The notes under the pieces were generated by a model that was not told where the DNA came from, did not search any database, and worked only from the letters and a program-made list of their open reading frames with translations. From NCBI GenBank assembly GCA_964036195.1, contig OZ038452.1:1550001-1614000 (forward strand): a DNA stretch of 64,000 nucleotides, written 5' to 3'. The translations under genes and the position numbers were made by a program. The first letter of the stretch is position 1. The number at the start of each line of letters is the position of its first letter. Of this stretch, positions 12,001 to 15,000 are shown one piece after another. The DNA is from Sphaerolaimus hirsutus (lineage: Eukaryota > Nematoda > Chromadorea > Monhysterida > Sphaerolaimidae).

Positions 12001-15000
12001 CCGCTGCGAAAAAAAAGAGATATAAAACAACGAAAAAAACAATCCCAATCCGGGTCCCGAAAAGTAGATCCCGTTTGAAACCTATCACAGGGTGGTGGTA
12101 AAGTGACAATAACGCGTTTGCATGAATAACTTGCGAACGAGTGGAGCTATCGCAGCCATATTTTCAGGGATCCAATCCTATTTAGTTGTTAATGTTGACC
12201 TAAAATTTAACGTTAATCCGACCACCCAGTGACAAGTTATTCGAAATCTAGAGCGCAGGTCTAAATTGCCGCACCCTGTACATAGAAGAGTGAAACCGGG
12301 CGATCACGTTAAATATCGTGATCACGGAAACATCAAGGTTCGAACCTTTGCACCCGTCCCAGCGCATATGTTCAATATCATTCAATTCTAACTAGGGATT
12401 TTATTAAACTTTTATAAAAAGACAAGAATAGAAACCGTTTTTATTACAAAAAGTTTTAGTATTTACAAAAAGTTTTACTATTTACAAAAAGTTTTAGTAT
12501 TTACTCATTCCGTAGGTATACTCGGCGGACATCACACTTAGTATCAAAACCTACCATAAACCATCTGAATAATCGGCCCCCACACGCTAGTTGACATTGA
12601 CACCAAATGTCAACTGGTGCCGATCCCGATTTAAAGCTTGCTGACGAGTGGACGAACGACGTTCAAATGCAATCTTTGAATTGGGAATGAAACCGGTTGA
12701 CATTTGGTGTCGATGTAAACTAGCGTGTGTGGGGCCAATACATTGTAAATATTTGTTGTTTTCATATGCTGTGTGGCGTGTGTGGGGCCAATGAACCAAA
12801 AATCATACAGCTTTTTCATCATAATATTTCGTTTTTACTATTGATAATTAATAACGAAATTCATCAGAATATTTTATTCATTAAGTTGTGGTAGGTTCTC
12901 ATACTAAGTGTGCTGTCCGCCGAGTATACCTATATTGGTTATTTATATCAACTATGACGTCATGATGGTGTGTCGCCTTCAGAAAAATGCATAGCACGCT
13001 GTCCGGCGAGTATATTACCGTATCAGTGACATGTGGACAACCAAATTTGTAATTTGCAACCACGAACGAACCACTTTTCTTGTCACTCAAAGTGCACAAA
13101 GTGCAAAATGAGGCAAGTTTTTATGCAACCCCCAACCCAAAACCCACCTATTATCGGGCGTGAATTGCGCCGCGCCGCAGCTGTTTGCGAGCCTGAGCTC
13201 CTCCAGCTGCCTGGTCATGAGCAGCTGCTCGTGGCTGCTGTACTGGCTGCTCAGGCCCGAGCCGGTGCCCACGGGCGTGCCGTAGCCCGACGTGGACGGC
13301 AGCGACACGATCGACCAGCGCCGCATGTCCACCGGTGGCACGCCTGCGGTGATCACGCCGTTTTGCCGGCGCAGGACCAGTGCTCAAGTAACAATGTCCG
13401 GTGCCAATGTAGACCTGGTGCTTAGGTACGGCCCCCGTAATTGAGCACTGGGTCTTCATGGGCACTGCAGGGGTTCAGTATGGGGAGTTGGAGGGGGTTG
13501 GGTTACCCCCTAAACGCTCCAGCTATCTACATATTTATGTATCTAGCGATTTGTCTCCCTTTTTTCCTTCTAAAGCTTGAAAAAACCCATACAAGAAGCG
13601 ACCCCCCTACAAAAACATCAAATATACACATGATTAGTGATGGAATGACGCTATTTGAGGGCGCCAAAGTTTTTTGCTACTTGTGCACCGGGTTTACTTG
13701 TGCACCGACACACCCCCGTCTTGCCGCGCAGGCACGCCTGCTTACTCACTACAGGGATTACCCCCTGAACGCTCCAGCTATCTATCAAACCCCCTGGCCG
13801 TGGAACTATCTATCTATCCAGAGGTAAAAGTTTTGGCTACTATCCCTCGAACCCCCCGGCCGGCAAAAAGAAATAGACCACTATCTATCTGGAGCTACCT
13901 TTGAGAAATTTTGGTTCAATTTTCGCTCAAAATAGCTCATTTTCATACCTTTGTATAGTTTTTCACCTCAAAATAATTATATTTCATGTGAATAATGCCT
14001 ATTTTGGATATATAAGTGCTTATATAGCTATTTTTAGTCATTTTTCACCTTTTAAGTGATTTCTGTTCATTTTTTTCCATTCTACACCCTGAAACAGCCG
14101 ATGTATTTAACTCCCGCTAACACCCTCCACCAAAAAACAAACAAAAATTCCTCGAGCGGAACAGCAACCGAAAAATGTTTGGAGGGGGGAGGGGGGTAGA
14201 GGGGGGGGGGTTCGCGGGAAATACCACTCATCAAAATGTCGCGCCCAACCTCTAGCATTCTGTTGGCTGATGCACCGCTGTCCCGGCTGCGGCGCGGCGG
14301 CGGGGGTGATGGCGCGCGGCACCAGCCGGCCGGACGCGCAGGCGGCGGGCGGCGGCGCGGGCGACCTGCACCTGGGGGCACTCCCAGACCCGGTAAAAGA
14401 CCCTGTAAAGTGTCAAAGACCCTGTAAAATGTCATGTGTCATGCAAAAGACCCTGTAAAATGTCATGTGTCACGTAAAAGAGCATGTAAAGTGTCATGTG
14501 TATCCAAATCTTATTTTATCGTATCCAAATATAATGTTTTGTATCCAAATCTTAGGTCAACAAGTAAGATTTGAATACGACAAAATAAGATTTGGATACG
14601 ATAAAATGAGATTTGGATACACATGACACTTTACAGGGTCTTTTACATGACATTTGACACTTAACAGGGTCTTTCACGTGACACATTACATTTTACAGTG
14701 TCTTTTGCATGACACATGACATATCACAGGGTCTCTGACACTTTACAGGGTCTTTTACAGGGTCTGGGAGTGGCACCTGGGCGCCATCACGGGGCTTGTG
14801 CTGCTGCAGCCGGCCGCCGCCCCGCCACTGGGCGGGTTCAGACTGTGCCGGTGCGTGCGCGCGGAGTGCCGTCGCATCACGCCCAGTTCTTTCTGCGGGG
14901 GAATGTGTCAAATTTGAATGGCTTTTGAATGGCGATTTCGGGTCGCTGGAGAAATGAGCTTCGACAGACCGTTTCATAACGTGTTTCGGGAATGTTCCGA

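What the first reader, a model, noticed from the sequence alone, without database searches (positions are those of the whole stretch)
14369..14781. A MITE that is exactly one intron of MAST: an introner in an animal gene
Seen: an 8-bp perfect duplicate, CACCTGGG, flanks a 397-bp element with inverted ends. On the gene strand the duplicate is CCCAGGTG. The only in-phase donor is CCCAG-GTGCCA in one copy, and the acceptor is CCCAG-GTGCAG in the other. Removing the intron gives [10 protein letters not shown] with no gained or lost residue. Known: introners are DNA transposons whose target duplicates supply splice sites (described in algae and other eukaryotes). Inference: this intron was born by one insertion into an AGGT proto-splice site.
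Basis: partly seen in the sequence, partly recalled or inferred. Interest (0 to 1): 0.93.

Follow-up and report, generated by a model that had tools for sequence, protein, structure and literature searches.

The report
Jumping DNA forming a gene's intron
A short piece of mobile DNA appears to have landed inside the coding sequence of an animal kinase gene, and the letters it duplicated on landing look like a splice donor and a splice acceptor, so it may have been born as an intron; splicing has not been seen.

Summary
A 396-397 bp inverted-repeat element (14377-14773) is flanked by a perfect duplicate, 9 bp rather than 8 (GCACCTGGG), in a MAST-type kinase gene on the minus strand. On the gene strand both copies read CCCAG|GTGC. 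Removing 14372-14776 (405 nt) leaves an open frame that runs on through the next exons; leaving it in gives a stop at the seventh codon. Of nine intron models compared, only this one has a long in-register repeat across its junctions: 9 nt against 0-3. Corrections: the donor is not the only in-phase one, and stronger cryptic acceptors lie inside the element. New: the window holds four copies of this MITE family. A second copy (9636-9812) also interrupts MAST reading frame, but its gene-strand target, CCTGGTG, lacks AG. All four have CACC at the same place in the left flank (2 of 200,000 random quartets share any 4-mer so). Best reading: a MITE whose favoured target, roughly CACCNGGTG, can itself be a splice site made this intron in one insertion. 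Splicing is inferred; the strict Introner definition (at least four similar introns) cannot be tested without the genome.

The parts
14377..14773 (.). MITE copy 'el1' (396-397 bp, largely self-complementary)
   Evidence: inverted arms; RNA fold of 14340-14810 -287 kcal/mol against a mean of -118 for 100 shuffles, z -28.6
14368..14376 (.). target-site duplicate, acceptor-side copy on the gene strand (GCACCTGGG)
14773..14781 (.). target-site duplicate, donor-side copy on the gene strand (GCACCTGGG)
14372..14776 (-). predicted 405-nt intron, GT-AG, phase 2
   Evidence: no RNA evidence
14777..14892 (-). MAST exon M upstream of the intron ([24 protein letters not shown]...SPVMAPR), acceptor TTCCCCCGCAG
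   Evidence: open frame, G+C highest at codon position 3 (0.84)
14250..14371 (-). MAST exon L downstream ([14 protein letters not shown]...), assigned donor GAG|GTTGGG, phase 1 into exon K
   Evidence: G+C 0.90 at codon position 3; phase agrees with exon K
14377..14398 (+). terminal inverted repeat, acceptor end; the only one of 8 family ends with G where the other 7 have T, which turns the end-proximal TTTTACAG of the gene strand into TTTTACCG
14753..14774 (-). terminal inverted repeat, donor end
9636..9812 (.). second copy 'elJ' (177 bp) interrupting another MAST reading frame
9628..9635 (+). elJ target duplicate, left (CACCAGGG)
9812..9819 (+). elJ target duplicate, right (CACCAGGT; 7 of 8 identical to the left copy)
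9815..9896 (-). MAST exon part J1 up to elJ ([27 protein letters not shown] after the split codon), acceptor GATCTCAG, phase 2, matching the donor of exon K
9508..9630 (-). MAST exon part J2 after elJ ([11 protein letters not shown]...[12 protein letters not shown]); its 3' end was not determined
8343..8630 (.). third copy 'el3', in non-coding sequence between exons, no duplicate recognisable (CACCGGGT / CCTGTGTA)
33880..34179 (.). fourth copy 'el2', starting 14 nt after a possible donor CAG|GTGCGA (first intron base 34193); flanks CACCATGA / CCCCATCC, 5 of 8 alike
13148..13343 (-). MAST exon K, start of the DUF1908 domain ([19 protein letters not shown])
   Evidence: PF08926, E 2.3e-7 for the open frame 13090-13383
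445..4323 (-). MAST DUF1908 exon (open frame 3962-4447) and five kinase exons (445-3082)

Best explanation
A non-autonomous DNA transposon (MITE) with 5'-GGCASTCCC-like ends inserted into the coding sequence of a MAST kinase gene at a target reading CCCAGGTG(C) on the gene strand, and the 8-9 bp target was duplicated. Each copy holds AG|GT, so the donor comes from the upstream copy and the acceptor from the downstream copy, and splicing from one to the other removes the element plus exactly one duplicate and restores the original codons. The long hairpin buries many internal cryptic sites and holds the two boundary sites close together. Shown: the element, duplicates, family, reading frames and empty site. 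Inferred: that it is spliced this way in the animal, and that the target preference of the family, not splice sites carried by the element, is why it works.
For: Perfect 9-bp duplicate directly outside inverted ends. The empty site joins into one open frame; unspliced reading stops at ...PRCHSQTL*. Exons M+L+K+J1+J2, joined at their assigned sites and with elJ taken out, read as one open frame of 213 residues into RPRSRSLK, with phases 2, 1, 2, 0. G+C at codon position 3 is 0.84 in M and 0.90 in L, the highest of the three positions. In-register repeat of 9 nt here against 0-3 for 8 other intron models (one of those, 31 nt long, is doubtful), and inverted ends with 1 mismatch against 5-9. Five joined kinase exons give Pkinase PF00069 E 8.1e-59 over profile 1-208 of 263 without stop or shift (best solved relative greatwall kinase), so no decay is seen where it can be checked. 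Donor score 3.5 lies inside the range of 11 other donors that I assigned in the gene (2.1-9.9) and acceptor 2.6 inside that of 12 others (0.4-11.6). Four family copies (7 end matches, 0.02 expected; the eighth end, 8617-8630). Cryptic acceptors 14402, 14421 and 14452 are 0, 12 and 12% unpaired in the fold against 31-38% at the boundary acceptor.
Against: No RNA evidence. The boundary acceptor (2.6) is weaker than the internal TTTACAG acceptor at 14402 (7.8), whose use with donor 14776 would shift the frame. With a matrix made from the gene's own acceptors the boundary acceptor is not among the 14 best AG sites listed for 14330-14830. Two in-frame paths with other sites score slightly higher in sum (6.9 and 6.3 against 6.0). 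Of the cryptic sites looked at in the fold, 3 of 9 donors (0.40-0.52 unpaired) and 1 of 5 acceptors (14550, 0.35) are about as open as the boundary sites (0.32-0.45 and 0.31-0.38). The spliced protein extends the DUF1908 match only a little (profile 20-64 against 30-64; 30.8 against 30.6 bits), so conservation across the junction itself is not proven here.
Confidence: 0.62

Rival explanations
1. The MITE did insert into the MAST exon but is not, or not mainly, spliced exactly: the transcript uses element-internal sites (acceptor TTTACAG at 14402, donor CCT|GTAAAA at 14758) or retains the element, giving a changed, reduced or null allele, possibly polymorphic.
For: Stronger internal acceptor and other in-frame paths. 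The sister copy elJ in the same gene has no AG at its boundary and must be handled some other way.
Against: The exons that were joined are otherwise open; 6 of 9 internal donors and 4 of 5 internal acceptors looked at are mostly paired (0-20% unpaired); the end-proximal acceptor AG of the family is mutated in exactly this copy at exactly this end.
Confidence: 0.22
2. Segments M and L are not one ancestral coding exon of the main transcript: they belong to an alternative 5' part or are not translated, and el1 lies in a longer intron.
For: The region before DUF1908 is low-complexity and poorly covered by profiles; open frame 15264-16292 upstream has no family match.
Against: Open frame, codon-position-3 G+C of 0.84 and 0.90, phases that agree through K, J1 and J2, good acceptor before M. 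The order RR-S-RT...SL...SP-PR-xx-SP resembles the N-terminal stretch of vertebrate MAST proteins as I recall it (recalled, no call).
Confidence: 0.13
3. An older intron stood at this place and the MITE replaced or filled it.
For: Intron positions in relatives could not be checked.
Against: The duplicate abuts the element on both sides and spans both junctions; insertion into an older intron would leave intron sequence outside the element.
Confidence: 0.03

Closest known systems
Introners (Gozashti et al. 2022, PMC9860276; the Florenciella type recruits both splice sites from the insertion site)
   Same: DNA-transposon ends, target duplicate of a length in the reported 3-9 bp range, both splice sites from the target, unchanged mRNA length if spliced as predicted, insertion into G+C-rich coding DNA, element poorer in G+C than its flanks (0.38 against 0.76-0.86)
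   Different: An Introner family there needs at least four similar introns reaching the splice boundaries; here one such intron is predicted, and the other three copies in the window are not exact introns
Merlin superfamily DNA transposons (PMC8101967, passages)
   Same: GG at 5 of 8 ends, 8-9 bp duplicates
   Different: 3 of 8 ends start GC; no transposase seen; assignment rests on ends and duplicate length only
Newly gained introns of Daphnia (PMC4202315, abstract and outline seen)
   Same: recent intron gain in an animal
   Different: its authors point to staggered double-strand breaks, not to a MITE family

Membership tests
MITE (non-autonomous DNA transposon) | short, non-coding, terminal inverted repeats, target duplication | tested here: met
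   el1:
MITE (non-autonomous DNA transposon) | repeated family | tested here: met
   4 copies in 64 kb; genome copy number unknown
Introner | insertion creates a spliced intron | tested here: inconclusive
   empty site in frame; splicing not observed
Introner | element reaches both splice boundaries | tested here: met
   el1: element plus one duplicate equals the predicted intron
Introner | family of at least four similar introns, paralogues excluded (PMC9860276) | not testable with these tools
   no genome held; in the window 1 of 4 copies fits
Merlin superfamily | ends 5'-GG, 8-9 bp duplicates (PMC8101967) | tested here: inconclusive
   5 of 8 ends GG, 3 of 8 GC; duplicates 8/8 (9/9 extended) in el1 and 7/8 in elJ, 5/8 in el2, not recognisable in el3
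Merlin superfamily | mobilised by a DDE_Tnp_IS1595 transposase | not testable with these tools
   no genome in which to seek an autonomous partner

The most novel reading that the evidence does not exclude
The family is an introner by target choice: its transposase prefers a palindromic site near CACCNGGTG, which with A in the centre on the coding strand is CCAG|GTG, a ready-made donor and acceptor once duplicated. Exonic insertions in one orientation of the site are then born as exact introns and those in the other are not. In this one gene both outcomes would be visible: el1 (CCCAGGTG, spliceable) and elJ (CCTGGTG, not exactly spliceable).
Probability: 0.25. Interest if true: 0.82.

Novelty: new member of a known kind. 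Interest (0 to 1): 0.58.

Why it matters
[quoted passage not shown] A clean animal case in a signalling kinase gene, with a sister insertion in the same gene whose target lacks AG, would make the rule 'the target sequence decides whether an insertion becomes an intron' directly testable.

Tried and rejected
Family copies outside the window: pattern CCCAGACCCTGTAAAA in viral contigs gave 9 loci; BLASTN of el1 against all 9 gave 68 rows, none longer than 25 nt, so I count none as family members (one search had shown only the first 40 rows). A MAST exon K protein against viral contigs: 52 pattern matches, none confirmed. PDB search with the spliced N-terminal stretch: 0 of 177635 sequences up to E 10. 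Pfam on 10 window open frames: 5 with a match, 5 with none (1964-2293, 2860-3093, 3450-3737, 15264-16292, 59025-59420); the first two do fit once exons are joined.

A chance origin of the duplicate was rejected. Scan for duplicates with inverted ends: 74 rows in the window (many overlapping or in tandem repeats) against 0-3 in each of 10 simulated sequences. An exact splice of elJ was sought: in target register it would be GT...TG, so not canonical. 23 in-frame stop-free paths exist there, the highest-scoring using acceptor TTTTACAG at 9649, and the phase-2 donor of exon K would fit that acceptor too; I could not decide among them. Whether CACC belongs to the element and not the target: of the four right flanks, reversed, only that of elJ carries it at the same offset, as a palindromic target predicts. 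The CACC test was made after seeing the alignment, though it counted any 4-mer at 6 offsets. In one search the codon-position G+C of exons C, B and G was computed from shifted starts; one search repeats it with right starts (0.70/0.37/1.00, 0.56/0.37/0.84, 0.56/0.41/0.85). The tunicate, human intron-gain, DNA-competition and gammarid/rotifer papers were read in passages only. The last paper search paired MAST kinase terms with intron terms; the 12 papers listed of 196 held no MAST term.

Full report
What is there. No genome is held for the window. Its minus strand carries a MAST-type kinase gene: three of ten open frames given match PF08926 DUF1908 (E 1.4e-30, 2.2e-7, 2.3e-7) and two a kinase domain (one of these, 434-652, is below Pfam's own cut-off by itself). 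Five kinase exons joined by their phases give Pkinase E 8.1e-59 over profile positions 1-208 of 263 without stop or shift, with greatwall kinase as best solved relative (60 of 164 matches listed). The link of DUF1908 with MAST kinases, and of these with animals, is recalled.

The element. At 14377-14773 lies a largely self-complementary element; a 9-bp perfect duplicate, GCACCTGGG, sits directly outside it at 14368-14376 and 14773-14781. On the gene strand the junctions read CAG|GTGCCA and CCCAG|GTGCAG. Removing 14372-14776 gives [53 protein letters not shown]...; without removal the frame stops after PRCHSQTL. Joining exons M, L, K, J1 and J2 at their assigned sites, with the second element taken out as well, gives one open frame of 213 residues that runs through the DUF1908 start ([19 protein letters not shown]) to [12 protein letters not shown], with phases 2, 1, 2 and 0. 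In that frame G+C is highest at codon position 3 in M (0.84), L (0.90), K (0.92), J1 (0.96) and J2 (0.82), as in the kinase and DUF1908 exons C, B and G (1.00, 0.84, 0.85).

More than chance. I compared nine intron models of the gene, with sites that I assigned from conserved reading frames. The in-register identity across donor and acceptor junctions is 9 nt here and 0-3 in the other eight (one of which, 31 nt long, is doubtful); inverted ends have 1 mismatch in 14 here and 5-9 elsewhere. Of 622 gene-strand AGGT pairs 60-1500 nt apart, 23 had a run of 8 or more, and only this one also had inverted ends.

The family. Searches for the ends show four copies: 8343-8630, 9636-9812, 14377-14774 and 33880-34179 (7 of the 8 ends, the eighth). 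Copy elJ (9636-9812) interrupts a second MAST segment: J1 (phase 2, agreeing with the donor of exon K) and J2 (with RPRSRSL) rejoin in frame as [38 protein letters not shown]..., although the inserted length, 184 nt from the coordinates, is not a multiple of three. Its duplicates are 7 of 8 identical. On the gene strand its target reads CCTGGTG, so exact removal would end in TG; it needs other sites or exon skipping.

Target. All four copies carry CACC at the same offset in the left flank (CACCTGGG, CACCAGGG, CACCGGGT, CACCATGA); 2 of 200,000 composition-matched random quartets share any 4-mer at the same offset (tested after the alignment showed it). With the right copies of el1 and elJ this suggests a roughly palindromic target CACCNGGTG; the right flanks of el2 and el3 (CCCCATCC, CCTGTGTA) do not add support. 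Two copies lie in coding-like DNA and a third (el2) starts 14 nt past a possible donor; 4.7% of 1278 windows of 100 nt reach the G+C (0.68 or more) seen on at least one side of these three. Ends starting GG and 8-9 bp duplicates are what PMC8101967 gives for the Merlin superfamily (passages); three of the eight ends here start GC instead, so I leave the superfamily open.

Will it splice? With recalled consensus frequencies, the donor scores 3.5 (11 other donors 2.1-9.9) and the acceptor 2.6 (12 others 0.4-11.6). Within the element the acceptor at 14402 scores 7.8 and would be out of frame with this donor; eight in-frame stop-free paths were found and the exact one ranks third by summed score. 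With a matrix from the gene's own acceptors the boundary acceptor is not among the 14 best of the region. The hairpin (-287 kcal/mol, z -28.6) buries 14402 (0% unpaired), 14421 and 14452 (12%), while the boundary acceptor is 31-38% unpaired; but one other cryptic acceptor (14550, 35%) and three of nine cryptic donors (40-52%) are about as open as the boundary sites. At the acceptor end this copy alone of eight ends has lost the AG of the end-proximal TTTTACAG, which removes the nearest competitor of that type; a GAG at 14380 remains (score -2.5). One change may be chance.

Known or new. The mechanism is known: PMC9860276 (abstract, Results and Discussion, one Methods section and passages read; [quoted passage not shown] copepods are named. 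Its definition needs four or more similar introns, which I cannot test. My ten searches (open-licence papers only, capped lists) listed no paper whose title or abstract start describes this element or a MAST intron of this kind; only one search used MAST terms. Earlier algal work (Huff et al. 2016) and larvacean work (Henriet et al. 2019) are recalled, not read.

Verdict. That el1 is a transposed MITE with its target duplicate is close to certain from the sequence; that the target was MAST coding sequence is likely (about 0.85). That it works as an exact intron is the likeliest reading (0.62). That the family makes introns by choosing splice-like targets is a bold but testable reading (0.25).

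Noticed in passing
9636-9812: Second copy of the same MITE inside MAST reading frame, in frame across the empty site, whose gene-strand target lacks AG.
   Followed up: partly
   Followed up: no
32245-32849: Element with perfect 14-nt inverted ends CCACTATGAAACAA and duplicate TCTCGAGA.
   Followed up: no
10801-11043, 20042-20305, 48884-49129: Dispersed repeat with a shared open frame [31 protein letters not shown].
   Followed up: no
39685-44960: Large tandem-repeat blocks (units of 115-465 bp, then about 27-bp GGGGTCCCC-type units).
   Followed up: no
about 1859-1874, 4328-4340, 9905-9919: Three acceptors of the MAST gene have long poly-C tracts in place of poly-T.
   Followed up: no
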